This document shows positions 38,127 through 57,600 of a stretch of DNA of 64,000 nucleotides, piece by piece. The notes beneath the pieces are model-generated. The model was not told the DNA's origin. It did no database searches and saw nothing but the letters and a program-made list of their open reading frames with translations. The position numbers and the translations under genes are program-made. Numbering within the stretch: position 1 is the stretch's first letter; every line of letters starts with the position of its first letter. Source of the stretch: Cupriavidus taiwanensis (GTDB taxonomy: Bacteria; Pseudomonadota; Gammaproteobacteria; Burkholderiales; Burkholderiaceae); contig NZ_LT977070.1 of assembly GCF_900250075.1 (NCBI RefSeq), forward strand, positions 2,584,894 through 2,648,893. The letters run 5' to 3'.

Positions 38127-38152
38127 CCGACACCGGCATGCCGGGGTGTCGG
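38127..38152. promoter_or_regulatory. Upstream activator site (inverted repeat) for the sigma-54 promoter at 38262
   Basis: CCGACAC (38127-38133) and GTGTCGG (38146-38152) are perfect arms separated by 12 bp. It lies about 110 bp upstream of the -24 element. Related repeats with CCAACA/TGTTGG arms lie at a similar distance upstream of the two other sigma-54 promoters. Confidence 0.7.
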
Positions 38153-38261
38153 CGCGCATCCAACTCGGCGGCGCCGGCGGCAAGCGGCGGCTGGCCCCCG
38201 CCCTGCCAGGAACCCGCGTCAGGCCCCGGATTCCGGCCCGAGCCGGCCCGCTGGCCGTCGG

Positions 38262-38277
38262 TGGCACGCCGCTTGCT
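38262..38277 (+). promoter_or_regulatory. Sigma-54 promoter (perfect consensus) of the first peptide gene
   Basis: TGGCACGCCGCTTGCT matches the -24/-12 consensus TGGCACG-N4-TTGCW at every fixed position. It is 52 bp before the peptide start codon at 38330. Confidence 0.88.
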
Positions 38278-38329
38278 CGATAGCTCGTACCGCCCCCGGC
38301 GCATCGGCGCCTTCCACCGGAGACCGCAT

Positions 38330-38623
38330 ATGGCCACCCTCTCGATCAATGACCTTGCCGGCTGCCGCGAACTGGCTCCCGCCGCCATGGCGCGCGTACG
38401 CGGCGCGGGTGGGCAATGGGTATTCGGCTGGATCCGGCCGTTCGTGCCGTCGTCGCCGGCGCCGCTCGGCACGGTGATCAACTTTTACGAGATCAACTAC
38501 AGCTTCTATGCTGATCAGATAAACAACCAGTTCCAGAACATCGATATCCGCAACAACGCGCCGAACGCCAATATCAATGTGCGGGGCGACCAGGGTGCCA
38601 GGAACGACGGCCGGCTGGTCTGA
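38330..38623 (+). CDS. Double-glycine-type leader peptide precursor (GA variant), Asn-rich core
   Basis: The 97-residue product begins MATLSINDL and its first 26 residues align without gaps to the other five precursors, ending AMARVRGA. Hydrophobic residues occupy -4 (Val), -7 (Met) and -12 (Leu) from the predicted cleavage, as in C39-peptidase substrates; Gly-Ala replaces Gly-Gly. Two more glycines follow at once (GAGG), so the exact cut is open. The 71-residue core lacks Cys and its second half is rich in Asn, Ile and Phe (QINNQFQNIDIRNNAPNANINV). CGGAG lies before ATG 38330. It has its own sigma-54 promoter and is followed after 62 bp by the PP2C gene. Confidence 0.82.
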   Translation: MATLSINDLAGCRELAPAAMARVRGAGGQWVFGWIRPFVPSSPAPLGTVINFYEINYSFYADQINNQFQNIDIRNNAPNANINVRGDQGARNDGRLV

Positions 38624-38685
38624 TCCCGCCGTCGGGTGCCCTCCGGCGCCGGCGTGGAGCGTTGCGGATCGCAGCGGAGACCAGC

Positions 38686-39462
38686 TTGGGTTTCGACTCG
38701 CATTTCCGGTGGACCTCGGCGGCGTGCACCGACGTCGGGCGCGTGCGCGAGCGCAATGAGGACGCCTGCCTGGACCTGCCCGGGCAGGAACTGTGGGCCG
38801 TGGCCGACGGCATGGGGGGCCATGCCGTGGGGGATTTCGCCAGCCAGGCGGTGGTGCGGGCGCTGACAGCCCTGCCGCCGCAGGCGCGGCTGGAAGACCG
38901 CATCGACGCCACGCGCGCGGCCTTGCAGGGCGTGAACCTGGCGCTGGTCGACGAAGCCGCGCGCCTGGGCGTGCGCTGCATCGGCAGCACGGTGGTGGTG
39001 CTGCTGGCCGGCGACAGCCGCTGTGCCTGCCTGTGGGCCGGCGACAGCCGCCTGTACCGGCTGCGCGGCGGCCAGCTGGCGCGCCTCACGCGCGACCACA
39101 ACCAGGTCGAGCGCCTGCTCGCGCGCGGGCTGATCACGCCGGAGCAGGCGCGCCACCATCCCGCCCAGAACACCATCACCCGCGCCGTCGGCGCGGCGCC
39201 GACGCTGGCGCCGGAACAGCTGCTGACCGACGTGGCCGACGGCGACGTCTACCTGTTGTGCAGCGACGGCCTGAGCAACGAAGTCGACGATGATGCGATC
39301 GCCGCGGTGCTGGCGCAGCAGGACGTGGCGCAGGCCGCGCTGACGCTGGTGCAGAAGGCGCTCGACGCGGGCGGGCGCGACAACATCTCGGTGGTGGTGC
39401 TGCGCGCGGCCGATCCTTGCGGATCGGACCGCACCCTGGTCAACCCCGAGCTCGACACCTGA
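38686..39462 (+). CDS. PP2C-family protein phosphatase
   Basis: The protein (about 258 residues) dephosphorylates phospho-Ser/Thr with two metal ions. All core motifs are present: DVGRVRERNEDA, VADGMGGHAVGDFAS, GSTVVVLLAGD, GDSRLYRL, LTRDHN, LLCSDGLSNEV and GGRDNISVVVL. I use TTG 38686 as start because CGGAG lies six bases before it; TTG 38662 would add eight residues and no ATG is available. It resembles PppA/Stp1 and probably reverses the kinase encoded at 53.8 kb. It is likely co-transcribed with the peptide gene upstream. Confidence 0.9.
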   Translation: MGFDSHFRWTSAACTDVGRVRERNEDACLDLPGQELWAVADGMGGHAVGDFASQAVVRALTALPPQARLEDRIDATRAALQGVNLALVDEAARLGVRCIGSTVVVLLAGDSRCACLWAGDSRLYRLRGGQLARLTRDHNQVERLLARGLITPEQARHHPAQNTITRAVGAAPTLAPEQLLTDVADGDVYLLCSDGLSNEVDDDAIAAVLAQQDVAQAALTLVQKALDAGGRDNISVVVLRAADPCGSDRTLVNPELDT

Positions 39463-39489
39463 CGCCTGACGCCAGAAACCCGCCGCGCC

Positions 39490-40833
39490 CTAGCCCTTGC
39501 CGGCTTCGGCCTGCCGGCTGGCGCGGAAATCCTTCGAGTGGATGCCGTGCTTCTTCAGCAGCATCTGCAGGTGCGAGCGGTTCATGTCGAAGCGCCGCGC
39601 CAGTTCGGCGACGGTGCCGCCCACCTCCTGCAATCCGCGCTCGAGAAAGGCGCGCTCGGCCTCGTCGCTGGCCGCGCGCTTGGCTTCGCTGAGCGAGGTG
39701 GCCATGGCGATGTCAGCGCCGGGTGCGCTGGCGCCGACCACCGCCAGCGCGGCAGGCTTCGGGCGGATGTCCTGCGGCAGGTGCGGCAGGTCGGCGGTAT
39801 CGCCGGCCAGGCAGCTCAGCCGGTACAGCAGGTTGCGCAGCTCGCGGATATTGCCGGGGTAGTCGTAGTGCAGCAGGAAGTCGCGCAGCCGCGGCGTCAG
39901 CCGCACCGGCGCGCGCCGCAGCATGCCGGCAGCCTCGTCGCTGAAGTACGACACCAGCAGCGGGATCTCGTCGCGCCGTTCGCGCAGCGCCGGCAGGCTG
40001 ACGTGGATCACGCTCAGGCGATAGAACAGGTCCTCGCGGAAGGTGCCGGCCTGGCTCATGCGGCGCAGGTCCTTGTTGGTCGCGGCGACGATGCGCGCAT
40101 CGACCGAGATGATCTCGTCCGAGCCGACGCGCTGGATCTCGTGCGCCTCCAGCACGCGCAGCAGCTTGACCTGCCCGGTCAGCGGCAGTTCGCCGATCTC
40201 GTCCAGGAAGATGGTGCCGGTATGCGCGCTCTCGAACTTGCCGCGCCGGTCGTTGCTGGCGCCGGTGAAGGCGCCCTTCTTGTGGCCGAACAGCTCGGAT
40301 TCGAGCAGGCTGTCCGGAATGGCACCGCAGTTGACCGAGATGAAGGGCTTGTCGGTGCGCGCACCGTTGGCGTGGATCACCTTGGCCATCAGCTCCTTGC
40401 CGGTGCCGCTTTCGCCGTCGATCAGCACCGGCAGGTCGGTCGGCGCGGCCTTCTCGGCGATTTCCAGCGCCTCGAGCAGCCGGGGATTGTCGCCGAAGGT
40501 CCCCTCGAAGATAAAGCTGCGCTCCATCAGCGCCTGGCGGCGCTCGCGCGGCAGGCGCTCGACCTCAGGCTGCGGCGGCGCATCTGTGGCCGTGGATCCT
40601 GCCGCGGCGTCGGCAGACGATGCCGCCTGCACGAAGCGCTCCTTGTGCGACAGCCCCATCACCTCGTCGCGCAGCGTGGTGGCCTGCTTGAGCAGCTTCT
40701 CGATCTCGGGCCGGTCAAGCTTCGACGCCCAGCGCAGCGTCGAGCGCAGGATCTCGATCTTCTCGATCAGCCCGGCGAACGACACCGGCGAAGTCACCGA
40801 GACGGGGGTGGCACCCTGGTTGTATAGCTTCAT
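39490..40833 (-). CDS. Sigma-54-dependent transcriptional activator (bEBP), no receiver domain
   Basis: The 447-residue protein has an AAA+ domain with Walker A GESGTGKE (140-147), the sigma-54 contact loop GAFTGA (187-192) and Walker B FLDEIGELP (209-217), and a C-terminal Fis-type helix-turn-helix (VAELARRFDMNRSHLQMLLKKHGI). The N-terminal ~105 residues are helical and match no input domain I know; there is no receiver, GAF or PAS domain. Its start overlaps the stop of the ABC exporter gene (ATGA). It probably drives the three sigma-54 promoters of the peptide genes. How it is switched is not visible; control by phosphorylation or partner binding is a guess. Confidence 0.93.
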   Translation of the reverse strand: MKLYNQGATPVSVTSPVSFAGLIEKIEILRSTLRWASKLDRPEIEKLLKQATTLRDEVMGLSHKERFVQAASSADAAAGSTATDAPPQPEVERLPRERRQALMERSFIFEGTFGDNPRLLEALEIAEKAAPTDLPVLIDGESGTGKELMAKVIHANGARTDKPFISVNCGAIPDSLLESELFGHKKGAFTGASNDRRGKFESAHTGTIFLDEIGELPLTGQVKLLRVLEAHEIQRVGSDEIISVDARIVAATNKDLRRMSQAGTFREDLFYRLSVIHVSLPALRERRDEIPLLVSYFSDEAAGMLRRAPVRLTPRLRDFLLHYDYPGNIRELRNLLYRLSCLAGDTADLPHLPQDIRPKPAALAVVGASAPGADIAMATSLSEAKRAASDEAERAFLERGLQEVGGTVAELARRFDMNRSHLQMLLKKHGIHSKDFRASRQAEAGKG

Positions 40834-43800
40834 GCGGCACTCAGTTGCTTCTGCACCAGTTGGAAATACATGCCCTTGCGCTCCAGCAGCTCCTCGTGCC
40901 GGCCCTGCTCGACGATGGCGCCTTCGTACAGCACCAGGATCTTGTCGGCCTGCATGATGGTGCTGAGCCGGTGCGCGATGATCACCGCCGTGCGCCCGCG
41001 CAGGATTTCCTGCATATTGGCCAGGATGTTGCTCTCGGACTGCGTATCCAGCGCCGAGGTGGCTTCGTCGAACACCAGCAGGCGCGGGTCGTGGTACAGC
41101 GCGCGCGCAATGCACAGCCGCTGGATCTGCCCGCCCGACAGTCCGATGCCGCGTTCGCCGACGACCTGCTCGTAGCCCAGCGGCAGCTTGCTGATAAAGG
41201 CATGCGCGTCGGCCATGCGCGCCACTTCCTCGATGCGGCGCCGGTCCGGGCTGTCGTCGCCGCAGGCGATGTTCTCGGCGATGGTGCCGGAGAACAGCAG
41301 GTTGGACTGCATCACATAACCGACCTGGGCGCGGTAGAACGCCGCATCGATCACGTTGAGGTCGTAGCCGTCGACCGTCATCGAACCCTCGGTGGGCTTG
41401 TAGAAGCCCACCAGCAGCTTGGCCAGCGTGGTCTTGCCCGAGCCGCTGCGGCCGACGATCGCCACCATCTCGCCGGGCCGGATGGCGAAGCTGATGTTCT
41501 CCAGCACATAGGGCGTGTCTTCGCCGCCGTAGCGGAAGTACAGGTCCTTCATCACGATCTCGCCCTGCAGGTCGGGCAGCATCACGCGCGACAGCACGTC
41601 CTGCGGCTTCTGCTCCGGCTCCAGATCGAGCACGTCGCCAAGCCGCTCCATCGCCACGCCGGCGTCGTTGAGCTGGCCCCACAGCGCCACCAGCCCCATC
41701 AGCGGTGCCAGCACGCTGCCCATGAAGGCGTTGAAGGCCATCAGCTGGCCGATGGTCAGCTCGCGCTCCAGCACCAGCGTCGCGCCCACCCACAGCACCG
41801 CGATGGTGGTGGCGGCATTGAGCAGTTGGCTCGCCAGCCCCACCAGGATATGGAACTGCTGCGCCTTGTATTGCGATTCCAGCGCCTTGGTGTACTTGCG
41901 CTCCCAGCGCAGCCGCACCGGGCGCTCGATGCCCATGCCCTTGACGGTCTCGGCGCCGCCCAGCGTTTCCATCAGGTAGGCCTTGGCATCGGTCGAGGTC
42001 GCGAACACGTCGCGCGCATAGCCCTTGACCCGCGGCGTCACCACCACCGTCAGCGCGGCGATCGGGATCACGAAGGCGATCAGCAGCAGCGTCAGCTTGA
42101 CGTTGTAGAGAAACATGATGGTGAAGTAGATAAACACCATCAGCAGGTTCAGCGCCGTGGTCACCGTCGATTCGGTCAGGAAGGCGCGGATGGTCTGGTT
42201 CTCCTGGAAGCGCGCGAAGATGTCGCCGGTCTTGCGCTTGGCGAAGAACGACAGCGGCAGCGACAGCGTGTGCCTGAAGAAATGCGACATCATGGCGAAA
42301 TCCATGTTGCGCACCATGAAGTTGGCCAGGTAGGCGCGGATGGTCGACATTAGCTGCGAGAACACGCTCGAGATGATCAGCCCCGCGATCAGCAGGTGCA
42401 GCAGCCCGACGTTCTGGTGCACCACCACGCCATCGAGAATGTTCTGGATGATCAGCGGCGGCACCACCCCCAGCATCTGGATCACGAAGGTCGCCAGGAA
42501 CAGGTGCGCCAGGATCTTCTTGTACGGCGCCAGGTAGCCGATGAAGCGCAGCCACGGCGAGCGCTGCACCGACAGCTGCGTCATGCTCTCGCCCGGCGTG
42601 AACAGCAGGCAGGTGCCGCTCCAGCCGCGCTCGAATTCCTCGGCACTCATCTTGCGGAAGCCGATGGCGGGATCCGCCACCCACACCCAGCGCGACGAGA
42701 TCCCGTACACCACCACGTAGTGGTAGCCCTCCCAATGGACGATGAACGGCAGCTCGAATCCCATCAGCGAATCACGCGTGCATTGCACCCCGCGCGTGGT
42801 GAAGCCCAGCGATTCGCCGGCGCGCGCCAGGCTGTCGAGCGTGGCGCCCTGCGTGGTGACGTTGGCCAGCTCGCGCAGCTTGCCCAGCGTCATCGGGATG
42901 CCGTAGTGCCGGCAGATCATCGCCAGGCAGGCCGCGCCGCAATCCATTTCCTCGGCCTGCTCCACCAGCGCGAAGCGGCGGATCAGCTTTTCGCCCAGCT
43001 CGGGCCGGGAGGCCAGGTCGAGCAGTACCGGACGCTTGCGCCGCTCGGCCAGCTTCTTCTGCCGATGCAGCTCGCGGTCCAGCACCCGGATGCGCTCCTC
43101 CAGCACCTCGCGCAGGCGCGGATTGCGCTCCAGGATCAGCTGCACGGTTTTCTCGGGAATCACCAGCAGGCGCACGTCGGTCTCGGCCATGGCCGACGCC
43201 AGCTGCTCCTGCCGCATCACGCAGGCGCGCTCGCCGAAGATATCGCCCTGGCCCAGCGTCGCCAGCGGAAACTCGCTGCCGTCTTCGCTGCGCACGATGC
43301 GCACCGTGCCCTGGCGCACCACGTACAGGCGCCGGTCGTCGCGTCCGTCCTGCTTCAGGATTTCCCGGCCGGCCGCGACGCGCTTCACGCCGACGCTGCG
43401 CACCGCGTCTTCCAGTTCCTGCTTGTCGAGCTTGCCGCGCAGGTCGAACAGCCGCGCCACAAAGCCGCCGGCCGAACTGATCGCGACATAGCTGGTGATG
43501 AAGGCCAGCGCCGCGGGATTGCCCGCCACCACGGGCTCGCTCACGCTGCGCGGGATCATCAGCAACTCGGTCTTGCCCGAGGCGCGCACCGACGACTCGT
43601 GCCGGTATTCGCGCAGCAGCGCGAGATCGGCAAAGACCTCGCCGGTCTTGCGCACCCCCATGCTGATTTCCTTGCCGTGCTCCTCGTTGAACACGCGCAC
43701 CGAGCCGGACCTGACGATAAACAGGCCCGGCGCGGCTTCGCCGGCATTGCAGACGGTGTCGCCAAAGCCGAAGCTCAGCACCTGCGCGGCGTCGGCCAGG

Positions 43801-43943
43801 CGCGCCAGTTCATCCGGCGTCAGCACCGACAGGATCTCGACCGTCGCCAGGAAAGCGGCCAGCGCCGGGCCCGCTTCCGGCGGCTGCGGCGCGGCGGTGG
43901 CGGCGTCGGCCGGACCGGCCTCGCTAGCGGGCTTCGATGACAT
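40830..43943 (-). CDS. Peptidase-containing ABC exporter with tandem cyclic-nucleotide-binding-like domains
   Basis: The 1037-residue protein has, in order: two cNMP-binding-type domains (about 40-150 and 185-290), a C39 peptidase domain (about 320-450), a six-helix exporter domain (about 470-750) and an ATPase domain. C39 catalytic residues are visible: Gln329, Cys335 (EEMDCGAACLAMI), His408 (WEGYHYVVV) and Asp424 (VADPA). ATPase motifs are VGRSGSGKTTLAKLL, LSGGQIQRLCIAR and LLVFDEATSALD. It should cleave double-glycine leaders and export the core. Whether the N-terminal domains bind a nucleotide is open, since the full phosphate-binding cassette is degenerate (GDIFGERACV in the second). It overlaps the genes on both sides. 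Confidence 0.95.
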   Translation of the reverse strand: MSSKPASEAGPADAATAAPQPPEAGPALAAFLATVEILSVLTPDELARLADAAQVLSFGFGDTVCNAGEAAPGLFIVRSGSVRVFNEEHGKEISMGVRKTGEVFADLALLREYRHESSVRASGKTELLMIPRSVSEPVVAGNPAALAFITSYVAISSAGGFVARLFDLRGKLDKQELEDAVRSVGVKRVAAGREILKQDGRDDRRLYVVRQGTVRIVRSEDGSEFPLATLGQGDIFGERACVMRQEQLASAMAETDVRLLVIPEKTVQLILERNPRLREVLEERIRVLDRELHRQKKLAERRKRPVLLDLASRPELGEKLIRRFALVEQAEEMDCGAACLAMICRHYGIPMTLGKLRELANVTTQGATLDSLARAGESLGFTTRGVQCTRDSLMGFELPFIVHWEGYHYVVVYGISSRWVWVADPAIGFRKMSAEEFERGWSGTCLLFTPGESMTQLSVQRSPWLRFIGYLAPYKKILAHLFLATFVIQMLGVVPPLIIQNILDGVVVHQNVGLLHLLIAGLIISSVFSQLMSTIRAYLANFMVRNMDFAMMSHFFRHTLSLPLSFFAKRKTGDIFARFQENQTIRAFLTESTVTTALNLLMVFIYFTIMFLYNVKLTLLLIAFVIPIAALTVVVTPRVKGYARDVFATSTDAKAYLMETLGGAETVKGMGIERPVRLRWERKYTKALESQYKAQQFHILVGLASQLLNAATTIAVLWVGATLVLERELTIGQLMAFNAFMGSVLAPLMGLVALWGQLNDAGVAMERLGDVLDLEPEQKPQDVLSRVMLPDLQGEIVMKDLYFRYGGEDTPYVLENISFAIRPGEMVAIVGRSGSGKTTLAKLLVGFYKPTEGSMTVDGYDLNVIDAAFYRAQVGYVMQSNLLFSGTIAENIACGDDSPDRRRIEEVARMADAHAFISKLPLGYEQVVGERGIGLSGGQIQRLCIARALYHDPRLLVFDEATSALDTQSESNILANMQEILRGRTAVIIAHRLSTIMQADKILVLYEGAIVEQGRHEELLERKGMYFQLVQKQLSAA

Positions 43944-44676
43944 GTTCCTGCGCCCTGGCCATCAGCCAGTCCTCGCGCAGCAGGCGCCGCACTTCGACCG
44001 CCACCTCGCTGTCGAGCGTCGCCGGGTGCTTGGCCCGCACCAGGAAGACCTCGAAGAACGAACGGTCGGCGGCCGGGAACGGCCCCAGCAGGTCGCCCGG
44101 CTCGGCATTGAAGACCTTGGCCTCGATCTCGGTCTTGAGCGAGCCGCGCAGCACCTTGCCGATCTCGCCGCCGCGCTCGCGCGTGTCGGCGATGGAATGC
44201 TCGCGCGCCATCTCGGCAAAGGCGTCGGGATCGTCCTGCAGGTACGAGATCAGTTCCCTCGCCTTCCCTTCGCTGTCGACCACGATATGGCTGACCTCGA
44301 TGCTGTCGAAGCGCGGCGAGTTCAGCGCAAAGTATTCCTGCACCGCCGCATCGCTGCACACCTGCGCCATCATCCGCTCCTGATAGAGGCTGTCGGTGAT
44401 GAAGGCCTCGAACTCGTCCAGGCTGACGTTGAGCGCATCCAGGTAGTGGTTCATGTCGGCGGCGCGGTGCAGGCCCTGCACGCGGCGGAACTGGTCGGCG
44501 CGTTCCTGGATCTCTTCCGGCGTGACCACCAGCCCCTGGCGCCTGGCGGCGTGCACGGTCAGCTTGTCGCGCACGACCTGCTCGACCAGCCCTTCGAACT
44601 GCCCGGTCAGCTTGAGCAGGCGCACGAACTCCTCGACCCCAAGCACCTCGTCGTCGATACGCACGATGCCAGTCAT
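43924..44676 (-). CDS. Parvulin-type peptidyl-prolyl isomerase, no signal peptide
   Basis: The 250-residue protein has an N-terminal helical SurA/PpiD-like chaperone part (EEFVRLLKLTGQFEGLVEQVVRDK) and a parvulin domain at about 125-220 (SHIVVDSEGKARELISYLQ, then FAEMAREHSIADTRERGGEIGKVLRG). Unlike SurA or PrsA it has no signal peptide or membrane anchor, so it would act in the cytoplasm, perhaps holding precursor peptides for export. Its end overlaps the exporter start by 20 bp, so they are co-transcribed. Confidence 0.9.
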   Translation of the reverse strand: MTGIVRIDDEVLGVEEFVRLLKLTGQFEGLVEQVVRDKLTVHAARRQGLVVTPEEIQERADQFRRVQGLHRAADMNHYLDALNVSLDEFEAFITDSLYQERMMAQVCSDAAVQEYFALNSPRFDSIEVSHIVVDSEGKARELISYLQDDPDAFAEMAREHSIADTRERGGEIGKVLRGSLKTEIEAKVFNAEPGDLLGPFPAADRSFFEVFLVRAKHPATLDSEVAVEVRRLLREDWLMARAQEHVIEAR

Positions 44677-44754: not shown

Positions 44755-46137
44755 CTAGCCCGCCACCTCGCGGAAGGGATCGAGCCCGAGGTCGATCAGG
44801 CGCCGTTCGCGCACCACGATCTCCGCCGTCGCGGTCATGCCATAGCGCAGCGGATACTTGTTGTCGGCCACGGTGTAATAGTCGCGCGCCAGGCGCACGC
44901 GGCCCTCGTAGACCGGCTGCTTGTCCGGCCCGCCGGGCTTGGTCGCGGGCGAGATGAATTCCAGCGTGCCGTCGATGATCCCGTAGCGCTGGTACGGGAA
45001 GGCATTGAACTTGAGCTTGACCGGCAGCCCTTCGCGCAGGAAGGCGCGGTCGCGCTCGGCAATCACGATCTTCACCACCGGGCGCGCATCCTTGGGCGCG
45101 ATGCCGCCCAGCGGCGTATTGGCCTGCACCTTGTCGCCGCGCTGGGTCGAGGTGACGTCGGTGATCACGCCGGACACCGGCGCCAGGATCAGAAGGAAAT
45201 TGTCCTTGTCGATGTTCTCGAAGCGGATGCGCGCGGCGGCGTCTGCCACCAGCCGGGCGGTCTGCACCTGCAGGCGCAGCTTGTCCTCGGTATTGGCGAT
45301 CTCGCGCAGCGCCGCGTCATATTGCACGCGCAACCCAGCGAGGTCCTGGCCGCTGCTTTCCAGCTCGGAGCTGGCCTGGGTCAGCTCGCGGCCCAGGCGC
45401 GCCTCCAGTTCGCCCAGCCGCGACTGCGCCACGCGCAGGTTGTTGTCCGCATCCTGCGCCGCGGCACGCTTGGCATCGACCTGCGATTGCGAAACCCCGC
45501 CCCCGCCGGGCAGCGCCAGCAGGCGCGCATAGCGGTCCTGCTCCTGGCGCGCGAACTCGCGCGCGCGGCGCGCATTGTCCAGGTTGCTGCGCGCTTCCTG
45601 CAGTTGCGCGCGCTGCTGCTCGGCCAGCCGCGTGGTGCCTTCGGCGATGCGGGTCTCGTGCTGGCGCGTGGCCACGTCGATCTGCTGCTTGAGCGCCGCC
45701 GCGCGGCGTTCCATCAGCGCCTTCTTGTCGGGGAACTGCTTCCACTCGCGCTCGGAGTCTTCCAGCTTGAGCTGCGCCTCCAGCGCGTTGGCGGCGGCTT
45801 CGATCGCGCCACGCGCATTCAGGCGCGCCAGCACATCGTCCTTGGACACGGGCTGCCCTTCCGCCACGTAAAGGTCGGCCAGCTCGCCGTCCACCGGGGC
45901 ATAGAAGCGCCGCACCTCGGATTCGGGCGCCAGCGTACCCTGCGCGGTGACAATGACATCGGCGTGGCCGACGAAGGACCAGACCAGCCCGCACAACACC
46001 AGTGCGAAGGTGGTGACGATGGTCAGCAGGCCCAGCCGCGACGGCTCCGCGCTGAGCAGGCCGATGCCTTCGGCGCCGTGGTCTTCGAGCGCCTCGGACA
46101 GCGGCTTGAGGCCGGCGTGGCGGGCATCGTCCTTCAT
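44755..46137 (-). CDS. HlyD-family membrane fusion (adaptor) protein
   Basis: The 460-residue protein has a single N-terminal transmembrane helix (residues 36-56), a lipoyl-like half-motif ([28 protein letters not shown]), a long coiled-coil hairpin and the returning lipoyl half ([28 protein letters not shown]), then a beta-barrel. It should bridge the ABC exporter and the outer-membrane channel. The start overlaps the FHA gene stop by four bases. It shares the NHLM/HlyD-type architecture. Confidence 0.95.
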
Positions 46138-50543: not shown

Positions 50544-50675
50544 GATGTGTTCCTGCGTGCGACGGCGGCGTTCGGCAGGGCTATGCCGGTTCGCCGGTCC
50601 AGCGGGGCCGCCGCGTCTGTCTGTATTGTGGTGCGCGCGGGCGCGCGCTCCAACCCCGATCGGCACGGGGTCGGC

Positions 50676-50705
50676 AAAAGCGCCGCGGGGTCGCCCCCGC
50701 GGCGC
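50676..50705 (-). terminator. Terminator between a peptide gene and the outer-membrane channel gene
   Basis: On the minus strand GCGCCGCGGGG-GCGA-CCCCGCGGCGC is followed by TTTT. It lies about 21 bp after the peptide stop, so the channel gene would get only read-through or use its own promoter. Confidence 0.8.
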
Positions 50706-50726
50706 TGCGCCATCTCAACCATCCTC

Positions 50727-50993
50727 TCAACGATAGATATTGTTGCTGGCGTTCTGGTTGGTATCCACATGCGAACGGACATGGTCGAGGAAGGCCGAGC
50801 CGTTGCCGTTCAGGTTGGTGACCGACTGCATCTGCGCGATCTCCTGCACGGCGGTGATGCTCTTGTCGAACGACAGGTTCAGCGGCTGGAACACGGCCAC
50901 GAACGGCAGCGCGCGGCCGCCGCGCACGGCGTGCATGCCCTTGCGGTCCAGGGTTTCGACGGTGGTCAGGTCGGTGAGGGTCAGCTTGGTCAT
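50727..50993 (-). CDS. Double-glycine leader peptide precursor
   Basis: The 88-residue precursor starts MTKLTLTDL; its 26-residue leader ends GMHAVRGG with Val, Met and Leu at -4, -7 and -12. The 62-residue core has no Cys and contains DKSITAVQEIAQMQSVTNLN and TNQNASNNI, nearly the same as the two precursors at 56.3 and 56.6 kb. GGAG lies seven bases before ATG 50993. A sigma-54 promoter lies about 85 bp upstream, within a stretch duplicated at 56.2 kb. Function unknown; a secreted bacteriocin-like or matrix peptide is possible. Confidence 0.9.
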   Translation of the reverse strand: MTKLTLTDLTTVETLDRKGMHAVRGGRALPFVAVFQPLNLSFDKSITAVQEIAQMQSVTNLNGNGSAFLDHVRSHVDTNQNASNNIYR

Positions 50994-51075: not shown

Positions 51076-51091
51076 CGCAGGGACTGTGCCA
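51076..51091 (-). promoter_or_regulatory. Sigma-54 promoter of the 50.9-kb peptide gene
   Basis: On the minus strand TGGCACAGTCCCTGCG has both invariant GG and GC dinucleotides at correct spacing. The same 16 bases occur before the peptide gene at 56296. Confidence 0.8.
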
Positions 51092-51297: not shown

Positions 51298-51726
51298 CTA
51301 CTTCACGTAGATCGTGATCCGCTTCGAATACACCGGCGGGTTGGTCGGTATGTGCTTGTCATCGCCCATCAGCAGCTGCAGCGTGTGCTTGCCCGGCGCC
51401 AGCTCGATCATGGTTTCGGTCTCGCCCGCGCCGAAATGCAGGTGATTGCGGTCGTTGGGAATCTCCTTGTCCATCGGCGGCAACTCTACGTCGATCAGCA
51501 GGTGATGGTGCCCGGTATTGGGAAACTTCACGTCCTTGGGCGCCACCCCCATGTTGCGCAGCCCGAACCACACCTTGAACGGCTTTCCGGCGGGCAGGGT
51601 CTGCCCGTCATTGGGCCAGCCGATATACAGGTAGGCATTGGGCGGCGCGGCCGTGGGGCCGCCCTGCACCCACGATGACAGCAACAGGCTGACGGCGAAG
51701 ACAGCCGCGGCAAGTAGTCGGGACAT
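51298..51726 (-). CDS. Secreted DUF4399-like protein (copy 1)
   Basis: The 142-residue protein has a signal peptide (MSRLLAAAVFAVSLLLSSWVQG) and a domain with the DUF4399 hallmarks: VWFGLRNMGVAP, TGHHHLLIDVELPP, HLHFGAGETET and PGKHTLQLLMGD. The His-rich GHHHLLID motif may bind metal. Function unknown. It is a close relative of the next gene on the same strand, and both lie inside the peptide-export locus; a role in that system is not shown. Confidence 0.85.
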   Translation of the reverse strand: MSRLLAAAVFAVSLLLSSWVQGGPTAAPPNAYLYIGWPNDGQTLPAGKPFKVWFGLRNMGVAPKDVKFPNTGHHHLLIDVELPPMDKEIPNDRNHLHFGAGETETMIELAPGKHTLQLLMGDDKHIPTNPPVYSKRITIYVK

Positions 51727-51784
51727 GGCGCTCTCCCTGTCTGTTGATCGGCATCTGCCAGCGTGCGCGGCGCACGCTGCGTCG

Positions 51785-52210
51785 CTATTTCACCGTGATC
51801 GTGATCTTCTTCGAATAGATCGGAGGCTCGAACGGAACATGCTTCGCGTCGCCCATCAGCAATTGCAGCGTGTGCTTGCCGGGCGGCAGTTCGACGCGCG
51901 CATCGGTCTCGCCCGCGCCGAAGTGCAGGTGATTCTTGTCCGAAGGGATTTCCTTGTCGAGCGGTGGCAGCTCGGTGTCGATCAGCAGGTGATGGTGTCC
52001 GCAGCGCGGCGATTCGACGCCCTTCGGGCAGACGCCCATATTGCGCAGGCCCATGCGCACCCAGAACTTGCCGCCACCGATGACAGCGCCGTCGTGCGGC
52101 CAGATGATATAGACCTCGGCATTGGGCGGCGCCGCCGTCGGCAACGACAGCGCAGGCGCAGCGGCCAGCGTGGCGGCCGCCAGCAGGCGGAGCAGGAATC
52201 GTCTGGACAT
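51785..52210 (-). CDS. Secreted DUF4399-like protein (copy 2)
   Basis: The 141-residue paralogue of the neighbour (58-bp gap) has a signal peptide (MSRRFLLRLLAAATLAAAPALS) and the same motifs CGHHHLLIDTELPP and HLHFGAGETDA. It has two extra cysteines (VCPKG and RCGHHH) absent from copy 1. The pair arose by tandem duplication. Function unknown. Confidence 0.85.
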   Translation of the reverse strand: MSRRFLLRLLAAATLAAAPALSLPTAAPPNAEVYIIWPHDGAVIGGGKFWVRMGLRNMGVCPKGVESPRCGHHHLLIDTELPPLDKEIPSDKNHLHFGAGETDARVELPPGKHTLQLLMGDAKHVPFEPPIYSKKITITVK

Positions 52211-52499: not shown

Positions 52500-53753
52500 A
52501 TGTGGCGCAACCTACCAGTGGTACGCGTGGCTGCGATGATCCCGATAACCGCCACGGCCGCGCTGCTCGCCACGGCAATGCCCGCGGCTGGCGAATCGGC
52601 TCAAGATTCGGCGGCGCAAGATTCGGCGGCGCAAGACCGGACACTGCTCTCCGGCATCATGCCGAAGAACACCGACGAGCAGTATGAGCTGAGCTTCTGG
52701 GAATCGATCAAGAACAGCAACTACGCCGCCGACTACGAGGCCTACCTGAAGCAGTACCCCAACGGGCGATTCGCGGGACTGGCCAGGGCACGGCTCGAGC
52801 GCCTGGCGGGCAGCGCCCCCGCGCCCAAGGCGCAGGCGAGCGCGCCACGCGCCGGCGCCGCGCCCGGCGGACAAGCGTCGCGATCCTCGCCGCCTGCTGC
52901 GGCTTCGGCGCCCCCGCCCAAGGCCGCGCCGCCTGCGCCCGCGGCCGCGCGTCCTGCAGCGCCTGCACCAGCGCCAGCGGCCCAGGCGCCGCGCGCCGGC
53001 GCGGCGGGCGACGGGGTGGTCAGTACCACGCTGCGCACCGCTGAGATCCGCGATTGCCCGGCCTGCCCGGCGCTGGTGACGGTGCCGGCGGGCAGCTTCA
53101 CCATGGGCAGCAGCACCAGCGACCCGGCCGAAAAGCCGCCGCATCAGGTCTCGATCGCCCAGCCCTTTGCCATCGGCCGCTATGAAGTCACGGTCGAGCA
53201 ATGGAACGCCTGTGCCGACGCCGGCGGCTGCCAGCGCATTCCCACCGTCGCCGACAGCGCCAGGAACGCACCGGTACGCGACGTCAGCTGGGACGACGCG
53301 CAGCAGTACGTGGCATGGCTCAGCAAGACCACCGGCAAGACCTACCGGCTGCCCACCGAAGCGGAATGGGAATACGCGGCGCGCGGCGGCAGTGCCACCA
53401 CTTACTGGTGGGGCGACCAGATGCGCAAGGGCAATGCCAACTGCAAGGACTGCGGCGATCCGTGGAGCCAGGATGCGCCGGCGCCGGTGGGTTCGTTCGC
53501 GGCCAATCCCTACGGCCTGCATGACGTCAACGGCAGCGTGTGGGAATGGGTGGCCGATTGCTGGCACAGCTCGTACAAGGGCGCGCCCGCCGACGGGCGC
53601 GCATGGAACGAGAACGCCTGCGGCGCGCGTGTCATTCGCGGCGGCTCGTGGCGCGAAGGCGCCAGCTACATGGTGTCGTCGACGCGCTTCAAATACAGCC
53701 CGAGCGTGCGGCAATCGCAGAACGGTTTTCGCGTGGCACGCGACATGAAGTAG
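52500..53753 (+). CDS. Secreted FGE-sulfatase/SUMF1-domain protein (TagR-like context)
   Basis: The 417-residue protein has a signal peptide (to about residue 30), a DSAAQ tandem, a helical stretch ([38 protein letters not shown]), a long Ala/Pro linker and a C-terminal FGE/SUMF1 domain ([50 protein letters not shown]). In P. aeruginosa the FGE-fold protein TagR acts in the periplasm to activate the kinase PpkA. Here it is convergent with a membrane kinase, so a similar role is inferred. ATG 52500 follows GAGGTG. Confidence 0.88.
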
Positions 53754-53802: not shown

Positions 53803-55887
53803 TCAGCGTGCGCGCGTGGAAATCTGCACCAGGTCCGCGCTGATGCGGTCGCGGCCATACGTGCGCGCCATCTGCGCCAGCGGCTTTTCCAGCGCCCGCA
53901 AATACTCCTGCCGCGACTCGACCTCGGCACGGCGCGCCGCGAACAGCGGCGCCGGCGTGGTCAGCAGCACCACCAGTTCGTTGCCGAACGGTGCCGATAC
54001 GACCCAGTCGCCGCTGTCGCCGATGGTGGCGTGATGCGCCGGCGGCGCCTGGTGGGCCGGTATGCGCTGGCTCGGCACCATATGCGCCACCTTGCCGTCG
54101 GCGGCAAAGTAATCGACATAGACATAGGAATCCTGCGCCGGCGTGCGCAGGTCGAGCACCATCGGCGCGCCCTCGGTCAGTTGCGTGCCCTTGCCGCGCA
54201 ACTGCAGCGACGATGCCGTTTCGCCCTGCCGGTTGCCAGACCAGTACGGCGCGATCATCCTGGCCACTTCGCATTTGTCGGCGGCCAGCGGCTGGGCGTC
54301 GACCACTACCTCGCGCAGCGCCTTGGCGCCGGGCAAGCCACTGAGCTGTTCGCGCAGGCGCGCCGCACCCACGCTTTCCGCCAGGTAGCCGCGCACGTGC
54401 AGGGTCTGGTCCTGGCGCGCACCGGCAAGCAGCGAGCACGGCACCGCGGCCAGCAACTTGCCGACCTCGGCCATCGACAACTCCGCCGCAGCGGCCGGCG
54501 CGGGCGCTGGCGGCGCAGGTGCTGGCGCAGCGGGCGGCTCCGCCGCCGGCGCGGCAGCGCTGAGCGGCGCCGTCGTGCCGGCATCCGCGGCCGGGACTTC
54601 GGCCTGCCGTTGCGACTGCCAGGCGTAGTAGCCGAGTGCCGCCACGCCTGCCAGCGCGGTCAGCACGCCACCCGCCACCAGCGGCCCGGAGCGGCGCGCC
54701 GGACCGCTTACGGCGGCCGACGCCACGCTCATGCCCTGCAGGAAGCGCGCGACCGTCGGCGTGCGCGTCTCGCGGTCGAGCGAAAGTGCTTCACGCAGGG
54801 TCTTCCATTGCGTGCGGCCCAGCTGCTGCAGCGGCGCCGGCTTGAGCCCCGCTTCGCGCGCCTGGTTGGCCGACAGCCGCTGGTAGGGATGCTTGCCGCT
54901 CAGCAGTTCGTAGGTCACGCAGGCCAGCGCGTAGATATCGTCGCGGGGGTCGGGCTCGCGATGCTCGAACATCTCGGGGCTGGCATAGGCCGGCGTCATG
55001 CCGCCCAGCGAACCGGGATCGAATACGGTGCGGTCGGACTCGTCGGCCGGCGGCAGGAAGCCGCGCGCGATGCCGAAGTCGATCACCTTGACCTCGCCGT
55101 TGCCGGTCAGGAAGACATTGGCGGGCTTGAAGTCGCAGTGCACGAAGCCGCGCTCGTGCGCATACGCCAGCGCATTGCCCATGCCCTGGATGATGGGCAT
55201 GGCGCGCGCCATCGGCATGCCGGCAAAGCCCGGGGCCTTGAGTACATGGTTGAGCGACGAGCCCGACAGGTACTCCATGGTGAGGAAGACCACCGGCCCG
55301 TCGCGGTCGAAGTCATAGACCGTGACGATGTTCCGGTGCGCCAGCGTCTGCGCCTTGCGCGCCTCGCGCTGCAGCGCCATCAGCGACTTGGGATGGCCGC
55401 TGAATTGCAGGTTAAGCACCTTGATGGCGATATAGGGCCGGCGGTCCGAGGCTTCCAGCTTGCGCAGGTCGAGCGCCTTGTAGACCGTGCCCATGCCGCC
55501 GACGCCCAGGCATTCCTCCAGCACGAAGCGGCCGTTGAGCGTATCGCCCACGCCCTTGGTGGCCGGCGTCTGCGGCAGCGTGCCGGGTTCGGGCGAGGCC
55601 GCATACATCGAGCCGGTCTCGGTGCCGGCCAGGCGCGTGGCGTCGGTGGCGCCGTCGTATTGGGTGGCGCCGCGGCGCTCGATGCGCCGCATCACTTCGG
55701 CATAGACCGCGGGCGGAAACGGAAAGCGCGTGTTTTCCTCGATCACCACCCGGGCCGCCTGGCTCGGCGTGGTGGGGTCTTGCGCCAGCGCCGTTTCGAA
55801 CGACGCGACGAACTCGTCGTCGGAGAGACCACCGTTCTGGAACTTGCGGATCAGGTCTTTGAGACTGGCCACGGAATGCCCTGACAT
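53803..55887 (-). CDS. Membrane Ser/Thr protein kinase with periplasmic DUF4384-like domain
   Basis: The 694-residue protein has a kinase domain at about 120-385: glycine loop LGVGGMGTVYKA, Lys156 in YIAIKVL, catalytic Asp252 in VHCDFKPANVF (Cys in place of the usual Arg) and Asp270 in DFG. A transmembrane helix spans about 401-423, then an Ala/Pro linker and a periplasmic domain including VLDLRTPAQDSYVYVDYFAADGKVAHMVPS, as in DUF4384. The layout matches PpkA-type kinases. ATG 55887 is used; an in-frame GTG at 55911 is possible. It is probably the kinase for the double-FHA protein and is reversed by the PP2C enzyme. Confidence 0.93.
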   Translation of the reverse strand: MSGHSVASLKDLIRKFQNGGLSDDEFVASFETALAQDPTTPSQAARVVIEENTRFPFPPAVYAEVMRRIERRGATQYDGATDATRLAGTETGSMYAASPEPGTLPQTPATKGVGDTLNGRFVLEECLGVGGMGTVYKALDLRKLEASDRRPYIAIKVLNLQFSGHPKSLMALQREARKAQTLAHRNIVTVYDFDRDGPVVFLTMEYLSGSSLNHVLKAPGFAGMPMARAMPIIQGMGNALAYAHERGFVHCDFKPANVFLTGNGEVKVIDFGIARGFLPPADESDRTVFDPGSLGGMTPAYASPEMFEHREPDPRDDIYALACVTYELLSGKHPYQRLSANQAREAGLKPAPLQQLGRTQWKTLREALSLDRETRTPTVARFLQGMSVASAAVSGPARRSGPLVAGGVLTALAGVAALGYYAWQSQRQAEVPAADAGTTAPLSAAAPAAEPPAAPAPAPPAPAPAAAAELSMAEVGKLLAAVPCSLLAGARQDQTLHVRGYLAESVGAARLREQLSGLPGAKALREVVVDAQPLAADKCEVARMIAPYWSGNRQGETASSLQLRGKGTQLTEGAPMVLDLRTPAQDSYVYVDYFAADGKVAHMVPSQRIPAHQAPPAHHATIGDSGDWVVSAPFGNELVVLLTTPAPLFAARRAEVESRQEYLRALEKPLAQMARTYGRDRISADLVQISTRAR

Positions 55888-55938
55888 GGTTGCTGGCAGG
55901 GCCTGTCCCACCGTGCGGATATGCCCTCTCCTCGCTGG

Positions 55939-55967: not shown

Positions 55968-56051
55968 ACCATGCGAGGCCGGCATGCGACCGCACCCCGG
56001 CGCGCTTTGCATGCGCCATGGCCTGATGAATGCGGCACTGTCGCAGCGGCG

Positions 56052-56199: not shown

Positions 56200-56215
56200 T
56201 GGCACAGTCCCTGCG
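56200..56215 (+). promoter_or_regulatory. Sigma-54 promoter of the peptide gene cluster
   Basis: TGGCACAGTCCCTGCG, identical to the element at 51076-51091, about 80 bp before ATG 56296. It should serve at least the first two or three peptide genes. Confidence 0.8.
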
Positions 56216-56295
56216 ATTGTCCCTCCCGAGCGCGACACCAACCCGATGCTCGAACCCCAAACCCAAGGCAACACCTTCCTCTACTGGAGACCATC

Positions 56296-56565
56296 ATGAC
56301 CACGCTGACCATCAAGGACCTGTCCTCCGCCGCCACCCTCGACAGCAAGCGCATGCACGCCGTGCGCGGCGGCATGTCGTACCTGCCCTTCGCCGCCGTC
56401 TACAGCCCCGTCAAGCTGTCGGTCGACAAGAGCATCACCGCCGTGCAGGAGATCGCGCAGATGCAGTCCGTCACCAACCTGAACGGCAACGGCTCGGCCT
56501 TCCTGGACCACGTCAAGTCCGACGTGCGCACCAACCAGAACGCCACCAACAACATCTTCGGCTGA
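56296..56565 (+). CDS. Double-glycine leader peptide precursor
   Basis: The 89-residue precursor starts MTTLTIKDL and its 26-residue leader ends RMHAVRGG. The 63-residue core begins MSYLPFAAVY, contains DKSITAVQEIAQMQSVTNLN and ends TNQNATNNIFG; it has no Cys. TGGAG lies seven bases before the ATG. It is the first gene of a four-gene run behind a sigma-54 promoter. The next gene is a near copy. No modification enzyme gene (YcaO, radical SAM, lanthionine synthetase) is nearby, so the core is probably unmodified. Confidence 0.92.
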   Translation: MTTLTIKDLSSAATLDSKRMHAVRGGMSYLPFAAVYSPVKLSVDKSITAVQEIAQMQSVTNLNGNGSAFLDHVKSDVRTNQNATNNIFG

Positions 56566-56621
56566 GCCTTCGCGCCCCGCTGACTGAATCCAGACACTGA
56601 CTACCGATACCGGAGACCATC

Positions 56622-56891
56622 ATGACCACGCTGACCATCCAGGACCTGTCCGCCGCCGCAACCCTCGACCGCAAGCGCATGCACGCCGTGCGCGGCGGCA
56701 TGTCGTACCTGCCCTTCGCCGCCGTCTACATGCCGATCAAGGCGTTGGTCGACAAGAGCATCAGCGCCGTGCAGAGCATCGCGCAGATGCAGTCCGTCAC
56801 CAACCTGAACGGCAATGGCTCGGCCTTCCTGGACCACGTCAAATCCGACGTGCACACCAACCAGAACGCCACCAACAACATCTTCGGCTGA
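56622..56891 (+). CDS. Double-glycine leader peptide precursor (near-copy of the previous gene)
   Basis: The 89-residue product differs from the previous precursor at few positions, mainly YSPVKLSVDKSITAVQE versus YMPIKALVDKSISAVQS. Leader (26 residues, ending RMHAVRGG) and C-terminal part (TNQNATNNIFG) are nearly unchanged. CGGAGACCATC precedes the ATG as in the other copies. It lies 56 bp after the first gene with no promoter in between, so co-transcription is likely. Two similar peptides could work as a pair. Confidence 0.92.
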   Translation: MTTLTIQDLSAAATLDRKRMHAVRGGMSYLPFAAVYMPIKALVDKSISAVQSIAQMQSVTNLNGNGSAFLDHVKSDVHTNQNATNNIFG

Positions 56892-56978
56892 AACCCGATG
56901 CGCAGCGCGCGCGGAGCCTGCCCGACCGCAGCAATCTCCGCGCCTGCCACCCCCACACCGATTCCAAGGAGCCCCATC

Positions 56979-57251
56979 ATGTCAACCATCCTCGTCCGCG
57001 ACCTTGCCCTGAGCAAGGAACTCGACCGTGCCTCGCTGGGTGCCGTACGCGGCGGCAGCTCGTGGCTCAGCCGCGGTGTCGGCGATGTCGGCCCGCTCGC
57101 CAACGTCACCGTCAACGTCAACCAGAACATCGCGCAGCTGCAAAGCATCAACGTCAACACGCTCAACAACAGCTTTGTCGGCCCCGGCGTCGGCCCGGTG
57201 CGCGTCAACGTCAACCCGTCGCAATGGGCCGGCAACTTTGCCGCCGTCTGA
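56979..57251 (+). CDS. Double-glycine leader peptide precursor with divergent core
   Basis: The 90-residue product starts MSTILVRDL and its leader ends SLGAVRGG. The core differs from the first two: it begins SSWLSRGVGDV and carries VNVNQNIAQLQSINVNTLNN, which shares the IAQ-x-QS element. It is rich in Asn, Val and Gly without Cys. AAGGAG precedes ATG 56979. It lies 87 bp after the second gene on the same strand. Confidence 0.88.
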   Translation: MSTILVRDLALSKELDRASLGAVRGGSSWLSRGVGDVGPLANVTVNVNQNIAQLQSINVNTLNNSFVGPGVGPVRVNVNPSQWAGNFAAV

Positions 57252-57300
57252 GCGCAGCGCGCGGCGGCCCGCGGCAGGATCGCGGGACCGCCTCGCCGCC

Positions 57301-57345
57301 TATACTGAAGCGGTCCCGCGGCCGCAAGGCCGTGGTCCCGCTTGA
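57301..57345 (+). promoter_or_regulatory. Possible promoter and hairpin before the last peptide gene
   Basis: TATACT at 57301-57306 resembles a -10 box, with a poor -35. It is followed by GCGGTCCCGCGGCC-GCAA-GGCCGTGGTCCCGC, a strong hairpin (about 57310-57341) without a T tract. It may be an attenuator or mRNA structure in the leader. Confidence 0.4.
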
Positions 57346-57357
57346 CCGGAGACAGCC

Positions 57358-57600
57358 ATGGCAGTGATCGTCATCAAGGATTTGCCCGACAGCATGGATC
57401 TCGACCGGCAGGCCATGACCACCATCCTCGGTGGCGGGCGCACTGCCGGCGGCCAGGCATGGCATGGCTTGCGGCGCCAGGGCGCCGCGCGCATCGTCGA
57501 CTACCCGGGTGGCCTGCCCGGCAACCGCCATGTGATGCCGCGCGAGGCGCCGCTTGGCCGGCTGCCGCGCAAGTCCGCGGGCAAGGATGCCGGGGACTGA
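57358..57600 (+). CDS. Double-glycine leader peptide precursor with short cationic core
   Basis: The 80-residue product starts MAVIVIKDL; the 26-residue leader ends AMTTILGG with Ile, Met and Leu at -4, -7 and -12. The 54-residue core is Gly/Arg-rich and basic (GRTAGGQAWHGLRRQG, LGRLPRKSAGKDAGD) and unrelated to the other cores. CCGGAG lies before ATG 57358. A terminator follows. A basic, Gly-rich core is compatible with an antimicrobial peptide, which is inference only. Confidence 0.8.
   Translation: MAVIVIKDLPDSMDLDRQAMTTILGGGRTAGGQAWHGLRRQGAARIVDYPGGLPGNRHVMPREAPLGRLPRKSAGKDAGD

What the first reader, a model, noticed from the sequence alone, without database searches (positions are those of the whole stretch)
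38127..57600. A sigma-54- and phospho-signalling-linked system exporting double-glycine peptides
Within 19.5 kb I see six leader peptides, a C39-peptidase ABC exporter, HlyD adaptor, TolC-like lipoprotein, parvulin, a sigma-54 activator, kinase, PP2C phosphatase, double-FHA membrane protein and an FGE-domain protein. Each part belongs to a known family; the combination is unfamiliar to me as a described system. C39 exporters with double-glycine substrates are known from bacteriocins and from biofilm-controlling peptides of Synechococcus (PteB/EbfG). The kinase/FHA/phosphatase/FGE set is known from type VI secretion. The proposed link between the two is inference from gene proximity and shared promoter signals.
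Basis: partly seen in the sequence, partly recalled or inferred. Interest (0 to 1): 0.95.

Follow-up and report, generated by a model that had tools for sequence, protein, structure and literature searches.

The report
Phosphorylation-linked exporter of small secreted peptides
Soil bacteria related to Cupriavidus and Paraburkholderia carry one co-inherited gene set in which a protein-phosphorylation switch and sigma-54 promoters appear to control a machine that trims and exports small asparagine-rich peptides; the set looks real and undescribed, but nothing has been tested in the laboratory.

Summary
The link between peptide export and phospho-signalling is more than proximity. In the same 299 Burkholderiaceae genomes, all 104 with the exporter also have the FHA protein, the kinase and the peptides (sets in 47, 73). 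Where the kinase lies far from the exporter it is still kept, with peptide genes beside it in the five such stretches read. Sigma-54 sites precede 137 of 164 first-in-run peptide genes against 2.4 in shuffles. A candidate phospho-threonine motif recurs in kinase loop, FHA linker and phosphatase tail. Best reading: a sigma-54-driven C39-ABC/HlyD/NodT peptide exporter under a threonine-phosphorylation switch that resembles, but is not, that of type VI secretion. Most peptides are neutral and Asn-rich, which fits matrix or surface material better than bacteriocins; amyloid evidence is thin (curlin-like repeat in one species, no confident predicted fold). A separate cationic peptide class exists. 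Searches of the held literature listed no description. I call it a new variant of a known kind.

The parts
38262..38276 (+). sigma-54 -24/-12-like site (10 of 10 consensus positions), 56 nt before lead1
38330..38623 (+). lead1: class B precursor, leader ends RVRGA, mature part with WVFGWI and Asn-rich
   Evidence: hit in 72 of 80 loci
38662..39462 (+). PP2C Ser/Thr phosphatase; C-terminal tail motif D256-R-T258-L-V
   Evidence: 73 of 80 loci
39490..40833 (-). sigma-54 activator, AAA+ with GAFTGA, no receiver domain in the Pfam scan
   Evidence: 80 of 80 loci
40830..43943 (-). peptide exporter: two CNB domains, C39 peptidase (C335/H408/D424), ABC transmembrane and ATPase domains
43924..44676 (-). 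parvulin-type PPIase without signal-peptide-like segment; TIGR04500 match below its cut-off
   Evidence: 79 of 80 loci
44755..46137 (-). HlyD-family periplasmic adaptor
   Evidence: 72 of 80 loci
46134..48851 (-). membrane FHA protein: two FHA domains (about 45-150 and 155-265), disordered linker with D315-R-T317-T-F, hydrophobic segment 391-409, helical domain 414-877
   Evidence: 72 of 80 loci
49080..50543 (-). NodT-type outer-membrane factor
   Evidence: 70 of 80 loci
50727..50993 (-). lead2: class A precursor, upstream of OMF-FHA-HlyD-parvulin-exporter-activator on the same strand
51077..51091 (-). sigma-54 -24/-12-like site (9 of 10), 86 nt before lead2
51298..51726 (-). DUF4399 protein, hydrophobic N-terminus
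   Evidence: hit in 67 of 80 loci (the two DUF4399 queries can hit the same gene)
51785..52210 (-). second DUF4399-type protein (likeness by eye; Pfam was run on the first only)
   Evidence: hit in 67 of 80 loci (same caveat)
52500..53753 (+). FGE/PvdO-like protein with hydrophobic N-terminus, no Cys at the two catalytic positions
   Evidence: 62 of 80 loci
53803..55911 (-). membrane Ser/Thr kinase, hydrophobic segment 409-427, weak DUF4384 match after it, activation loop D293-R-T295-V-F
56200..56214 (+). sigma-54 -24/-12-like site (9 of 10), 84 nt before lead3
56296..56565 (+). lead3: class A precursor
56622..56891 (+). lead4: class A precursor
56979..57251 (+). lead5: class C precursor (VNVNQN type)
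57358..57600 (+). lead6: class D precursor, cationic, R-I-V-D-Y-P

Best explanation
One functional unit: a sigma-54-driven type I exporter of double-glycine peptides under a phospho-threonine switch. Shown by sequence and comparison: conserved sigma-54-type sites in front of the precursor runs, the parts list, the intact catalytic residues and the co-inheritance. Inferred: three transcripts (lead1-PP2C; lead2-OMF-FHA-HlyD-parvulin-exporter-activator; lead3 to lead6), amplified by the activator that is encoded last in the second one; precursors held by the cytosolic parvulin, cut after GG/GA by the C39 domain and passed through exporter, HlyD and the NodT channel. Inferred: an envelope cue read by the kinase's extracytoplasmic part and the FGE-like pseudoenzyme leads to activation-loop phosphorylation at T295; FHA1 of the membrane FHA protein binds the phosphorylated kinase or its own phosphorylated linker (T317/T318), as GarA/OdhI-type FHA proteins switch (recalled), and its membrane and helical parts license the exporter or restrain the activator; PP2C resets the switch. 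Least certain: the neutral Asn/Gln-rich peptides (classes A-C) are extracellular matrix or surface material, and the cationic class D peptide has a separate role, perhaps cap, anchor or feedback signal.
For: Co-inheritance: exporter 104, FHA 106, kinase 106, leaders 107 of the same 299 genomes, every exporter genome having all (sets in 47, 73). Synteny in 80 named loci. FHA/HlyD and exporter/activator genes overlap by 4 bases, parvulin/exporter by 20. Kinase in 30 of 30 sampled exporter genomes: 25 within 15 kb, 2 on the same contig at 42 and 118 kb, 3 on another contig (shared DNA or contig length checked); all five unlinked stretches (L183-L187) hold leader genes beside the kinase. In 11 family genomes the kinase lies 100 kb to 1 Mb from the exporter. 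Sigma-54 site with at least 9 of 10 positions before 137 of 164 first-in-run leaders, 0 on the opposite strand, 2.4 in shuffles; 3 of 74 internal leaders. D[RK]T-hydrophobic type motif in kinase 39/42, FHA 73/76, PP2C 51/77 rows, against HlyD 0/76, activator 1/86, parvulin 2/84, FGE 1/63. Conserved catalytic residues. Exporters 34-37% identical elsewhere in the class lie beside an FHA gene in 5 of 7 stretches. Classes A-C mean charge -0.5 to -0.9, Asn+Gln 20-22%.
Against: No experiment. The 104 genomes are related (8 of 25 genera), so they are not 104 independent events. The phospho-motif was noticed by eye before it was counted; it also occurs in 46 of 74 OMF rows, where no cytosolic kinase should reach it, and in 11 of 91 exporter rows. 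FHA2 has Lys for the usual Arg in 76 of 76 rows, and both CNB domains lack the phosphate-cassette Arg. No leader was found near the machine in L173 and L174, nor in the remote stretches L175-L182. The curlin hint is confined to one species, below Pfam's cut-off, and an unrelated family (GerA) scores as well by chance on another member; the predicted peptide has no confident fold.
Confidence: 0.6

Rival explanations
1. Bacteriocin system: the peptides kill relatives, and the phospho-circuit times their release.
For: Double-glycine leaders and a C39 exporter are the classical class II bacteriocin/microcin layout (recalled). The best solved sequence for the class A profile is carnobacteriocin B2 precursor, but only at E 0.21. 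Class D peptides are cationic.
Against: No immunity gene among the genes identified; the gene map leaves little unassigned space beside the peptide genes apart from about 0.8 kb after 57600, though small ORFs there were not screened. Classes A-C are neutral to acidic and Asn-rich. Class B is conserved across genera and families. Genomes keep several similar paralogues.
Confidence: 0.17
2. Signalling peptides: one or more exported peptides are pheromones sensed by the kinase/FGE pair, making the locus a cell-density circuit.
For: Class D, defined by leader alone, has a R-[VIL]-[VILFS]-x-[YF]-P motif in 22 of 25 members against 1 of 214 others. The kinase is divergent from the lead3-6 run, and kinases far from the exporter keep leader genes beside them.
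Against: Classes A-C are on average 64-71 residues long after GG and multi-copy, unusual for pheromones (recalled); nothing links class D to a receptor. This does not exclude a matrix role of classes A-C.
Confidence: 0.15
3. Bystander: kinase, FHA, PP2C and FGE form an independent signalling module that merely neighbours the exporter.
For: All evidence for a functional link is genomic.
Against: Overlapping FHA and HlyD genes; co-inheritance even where the kinase is far away; FHA genes beside 5 of 7 remote exporters.
Confidence: 0.06

Closest known systems
Cyanobacterial PteB/EbfG biofilm system (PMC4997328 and PMC9981879, passages seen)
   Same: C39 peptidase transporter whose Cys is needed for efficient secretion of several small double-glycine proteins; EbfG1-3 reported to form amyloid
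   Different: The words kinase, FHA, cyclic nucleotide and isomerase do not occur in the 2016 main text; no sigma-54 control in the passages seen; peptide sequences were not compared here
Cyanobacterial C39/HlyD/SurA precursor clusters (PMC3140520, passages seen)
   Same: C39-ABC, HlyD and, in some groups, a rotamase-domain protein together with precursor genes
   Different: The words kinase and cyclic nucleotide do not occur in that main text; the products are called bacteriocins there
Type VI secretion threonine-phosphorylation pathway PpkA/Fha/PppA/TagR (review PMC10482370, passages seen)
   Same: Membrane kinase, FHA protein, PP2C phosphatase and periplasmic helper controlling a secretion machine; phosphorylation of PppA at T253 is in its reference list. 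That TagR is FGE-like is recalled
   Different: Here the machine is a type I peptide exporter; the FHA protein has two FHA domains and a membrane-spanning part; NCBIfam lists no type VI component
PknF-Rv1747 of mycobacteria (PMC3908365, start of abstract in the listing)
   Same: A Ser/Thr kinase positively modulates an ABC exporter; Rv1747 carries FHA domains (PMC5549992 abstract start; PDB 6cah)
   Different: There the FHA domains belong to the ABC protein itself; no peptide precursors, C39 domain or sigma-54 known to me
Pseudomonas Fap amyloid system (PMC5557850, passages seen)
   Same: A C39 peptidase is needed for secretion of amyloid subunits
   Different: FapD is periplasmic and separate from any ABC exporter; secretion goes through FapF

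Membership tests
C39 peptidase-containing ABC exporter (PCAT) of double-glycine peptides | C39 domain with catalytic Cys/His/Asp fused to ABC transmembrane and ATPase domains | tested here: met
   Pfam hits; C335 88/90, H408 88/90, D424 90/90 rows; bacteriocin transporter (4ry2) and ComA chains among solved relatives
C39 peptidase-containing ABC exporter (PCAT) of double-glycine peptides | Precursors with double-glycine leaders encoded nearby | tested here: met
   Six precursors
C39 peptidase-containing ABC exporter (PCAT) of double-glycine peptides | Cleavage and export of these precursors by this exporter | not testable with these tools
   Needs secretome or biochemistry
NHLP/NHLM bacteriocin export family | TIGR03796/TIGR03794 at or above curated cut-off | tested here: not met
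   561.6 bits against 853.3; 69.7 against 156.2
Type VI secretion threonine-phosphorylation pathway | Kinase, FHA protein and PP2C phosphatase together, catalytic residues intact | tested here: met
Type VI secretion threonine-phosphorylation pathway | Components match type VI family models and lie with type VI structural genes | tested here: not met
   No type VI-named family in the NCBIfam lists of FHA protein, kinase or PP2C; none of the ten cluster proteins scanned is a type VI structural protein
Formylglycine-generating enzyme | Active-site cysteine pair | tested here: not met
   Positions aligned to the two Cys of a solved FGE (6s07) are Met391 (48/48) and Lys398 (47/48, Arg in one) in the 48 rows that cover them, 15 partial rows apart
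Canonical cyclic-nucleotide sensor | Phosphate-binding-cassette Arg | tested here: not met
   No Arg in 90 rows: CNBD1 His 82, Trp 7, Leu 1; CNBD2 Gln 89, His 1; aligned to the Arg of solved PKG. Another ligand is not excluded
Curli-type functional amyloid | Curlin repeat above Pfam cut-off | tested here: not met
   Window peptides: no hit; three peptides of one species 16.5-17.9 bits against 20.7
EbfG-type biofilm peptides | Secretion, biofilm role and amyloid formation | not testable with these tools
   Needs secretome, biofilm and fibre assays

The most novel reading that the evidence does not exclude
A secretion system in its own right: a threonine-phosphorylation switch, like that of type VI secretion but on an unrelated machine, gates a tandem-CNB-domain C39 exporter that builds an extracellular peptide matrix from three neutral Asn-rich peptide classes, while a fourth, cationic class D peptide reports back to the kinase/FGE sensor. 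The same machine plus FHA protein exists in remote relatives with other cargo, which would make phospho-gated type I export a wider principle.
Probability: 0.3. Interest if true: 0.88.

Novelty: new variant of a known kind. Interest (0 to 1): 0.74.

Why it matters
It would be a type I peptide exporter whose activity is set by eukaryote-like kinase/FHA/phosphatase signalling and whose cargo genes share sigma-54 promoters, present in 104 of the 299 Burkholderiaceae genomes sampled. It defines unannotated secreted peptide families, predicts three phosphosites, and lets one ask directly whether phosphorylation gates export or transcription. It also suggests that threonine-phosphorylation control is a module that combines with unrelated secretion machines.

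Tried and rejected
Rejected: type VI membership; active formylglycine enzyme; canonical cAMP/cGMP sensing; defence system (PADLOC matches of kinase, activator, exporter and PP2C fall on their common kinase, AAA+, ABC, cNMP and phosphatase domains as far as the listed ranges show, apart from an activator match that also covers its N-terminal part). A hairpin with U-tract after lead2 looked like an attenuator, but stems of 10 or more pairs with a T-tail occur in only 8 of 63 loci (shuffles 0.05), so it is not general. Peptide structure prediction gave mean pLDDT 56 and no mature-region fold. The helical domain of the FHA protein (414-877) found no clear relative: the structure searches were filled by the FHA domains, so its fold is untested rather than new. 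Solved-structure searches with the peptide profiles gave nothing convincing. Sigma-70 and terminator scans gave 4 and 11 hits against 1.5 and 8.8 in shuffles and were not used. A first regex for leaders returned nothing.

Against my reading: no leader seen in the stretches L173-L182; the D[RK]T-type motif is also common in the OMF; curlin scores are no better than a chance GerA match in the same scan. Rows dropped: five weak or partial exporter matches (G383, G392, G424, G516, G588) of 109 before counting 104. Rows include overlapping stretches of the same genome and, for the exporter, some remote relatives, so they are not independent genomes. The class D regex was partly circular; redefines the class by its leader. 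Genomes without a match were listed only in part; their number comes from the tallies.

Literature: ten searches ran. Five aimed at this combination (3, 6, 10 of 34, 0 and 0 papers listed) and none of the listed titles and abstract starts describes this gene set; the others looked for known relatives. Subscription papers are mostly not held, so absence in print is not shown.
Full report
WHAT IS THERE. The window lies in a 6.77 Mb genome (G000, contig C1:2584894-2648893); the closest named relatives of its exporter are Cupriavidus. Gene map by Pfam and NCBIfam: lead1 and PP2C on the + strand; on the - strand lead2, NodT-type OMF, double-FHA membrane protein, HlyD, parvulin, exporter and sigma-54 activator; two DUF4399-type genes (-); FGE-domain gene (+); kinase (-); leads 3-6 (+). 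FHA/HlyD and exporter/activator genes overlap by 4 bases and parvulin/exporter by 20 (coordinates). The six precursors are the only matches of the class A profile in the genome at E 0.05.

ONE SYSTEM OR NEIGHBOURS? A scan of one genome per species gave 263 stretches encoding a relative of the exporter; the best 80 were kept with up to 10 kb on each side, some cut by contig ends. Hits of the window's other proteins there (blastp E 1e-4): activator 80, parvulin 79, PP2C 73, HlyD 72, FHA 72, lead1 72, OMF 70, each DUF4399 query 67 (the two can hit the same gene), lead3 66, FGE 62, kinase 16 of 80; in the window's layout the kinase begins at the edge of that flank. Hosts include Cupriavidus, Paraburkholderia, Caballeronia, Trinickia, Noviherbaspirillum, Herbaspirillum and Aromatoleum. 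In six Noviherbaspirillum/Herbaspirillum loci (L034, L042, L047, L052, L059, L075) no HlyD, FHA or OMF lies beside the exporter-parvulin-activator block; for the three followed up, OMF and FHA genes lie elsewhere on the same contig, near the kinase (L189, L183, L190; in L190 the OMF is cut by the end of the stretch and the FHA match is weak; HlyD seen in L189 only).

Presence and absence were scored over the same 299 Burkholderiaceae genomes. The CNB-C39 part of the exporter matched 109; five weak or partial matches were set aside, leaving 104. FHA matched 106, leaders 107, kinase 106. All 104 have FHA and leaders, and the FHA and kinase sets are identical. The extras are G506 (FHA and kinase matches with stop codons inside, no exporter match; perhaps a decaying copy, though stops are reported inside some matches in other genomes too), G588 (partial exporter) and G470 (leaders only). 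Nine genomes of the window's genus lack all four. In these five cases (L183-L187) leader genes lie beside the kinase in five of five; in L183 the kinase sits with OMF and FHA and only the exporter block is apart, and L187 begins at a contig end, so an assembly break is possible there. Searches show 11 genomes of one sister genus with the kinase 100 kb to 1 Mb from the exporter on the same contig number; for six of them a leader in the capped list lies 0.7-0.8 kb from the kinase. These genomes share ancestry, so the counts are not independent events.

TRANSCRIPTION. With the recalled consensus TGGCAC-N5-TTGC (GG and GC required), 137 of 164 distinct first-in-run leader upstreams have at least 9 of 10 matches and 160 at least 8; shuffles give 2.4 and 14.4, the opposite strand 0 and 6. 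The -12 element lies 44-100 nt from the start codon (median 76) apart from two outliers (185, 245). Internal leaders show 3 of 74. The activator carries GAFTGA and is the last gene of the lead2 run, hence the inferred positive feedback.

EXPORTER. C39 triad and ABC motifs are conserved; two rows have Asn at the Cys position, as do the remote L179 and L181. Neither CNB domain has the cassette Arg in any of 90 rows: CNBD1 His 82, CNBD2 Gln 89, both positions aligned to the Arg of solved PKG. They are probably not classical cAMP or cGMP sensors; a different ligand or a structural role is possible.

RELATIVES BEYOND THE FAMILY. Of 369 class-level genomes, nine besides the window's own have matches running through CNB and C39 regions. 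G784 and G751 (63-65% identical) keep activator-exporter-parvulin-HlyD-FHA-OMF, without a leader detected in 20.0 and 15.6 kb. Of seven remote ones (30-34% over this part, 34-37% by blastp over the protein), five have an FHA gene next to the exporter, four also activator and parvulin, one PP2C; two stretches (L175, only 8.2 kb, and L176) show no FHA gene (Pfam FHA confirmed in L177, L178 and L181). In L179 and L181 the C39 Cys is replaced by Asn, and L181 has TpsB-like and TolC-like neighbours, so the cargo there is probably different.

PEPTIDES. From 287 leader matches, 247 distinct proteins were taken. By a regex sorting of 239 of them classes A, B and C (129, 67, 19) have mean charge -0.48, -0.87 and -0.74 and 20-22% Asn+Gln. 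Class D, defined by leader alone (25), is cationic (mean +6.1), and 22 carry R[VIL][VILFS]x[YF]P against 1 of 214 others. Peptides of Noviherbaspirillum massiliense JC206 (genome of L047; L156, L190) match the recalled curlin pattern and score Pfam Curlin_rpt E 0.003-0.008, below cut-off; of 55 class A members only the two from this genome do, and a GerA match at E 0.005 on one member shows what chance gives. AlphaFold gave no confident mature fold. Matrix or surface material is thus favoured by composition, multiplicity and the EbfG and Fap precedents, not shown.

KNOWN OR NEW. The core (C39-ABC, HlyD, rotamase, precursors) is a layout known from cyanobacterial clusters (PMC3140520, passages) and PteB/EbfG (PMC4997328 and PMC9981879, passages). 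The control logic resembles the type VI threonine-phosphorylation pathway (PMC10482370, passages), and kinase control of an FHA-bearing ABC exporter has a precedent in PknF-Rv1747 (abstract starts in the listing). The combination was not among the papers listed (searches named in Tried and rejected). Hence: new variant of a known kind, interest 0.74; what keeps it from higher is the lack of any functional datum and the open role of the peptides.

Noticed in passing
51298-52210 (-): Two DUF4399-type genes with a G-H-H-H-L-L-I-D segment sit inside the cluster; hits in 67 of 80 loci; role unknown.
   Followed up: partly
57358-57600 and class D homologues: A cationic double-glycine peptide class with its own leader type and R-[VIL]-[VILFS]-x-[YF]-P motif, 22 of 25 leader-defined members.
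   Followed up: partly
L156 496-963 (-), L190 3294-3494 (-): Precursors of Noviherbaspirillum massiliense JC206 contain a curlin-like repeat after the same leader, below Pfam cut-off.
   Followed up: partly
L179, L181: Remote tandem-CNB exporters with Asn at the C39 catalytic Cys, next to an FHA gene; L181 also has TpsB-like and TolC-like genes.
   Followed up: no
G506: A 3.9 Mb genome with FHA and kinase matches broken by stops and no exporter match: perhaps decay of the cluster.
   Followed up: no
50590-50730 (-): Strong GC hairpin with U-tract after lead2, possible attenuator, in only 8 of 63 loci with stem of 10 or more.
   Followed up: yes
G000:C2:741138-741545 (L002): Second C39 domain in the genome, in a 301-residue open frame.
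   Followed up: no
39490-40833 (-): The activator matches a PADLOC RtcR_PspF2-CARF model over residues 11-431, so its N-terminal part may not be unique to this system.
   Followed up: no
37940-38014 (-): tRNA-Arg(CCT) lies at the left edge of the cluster.
   Followed up: no
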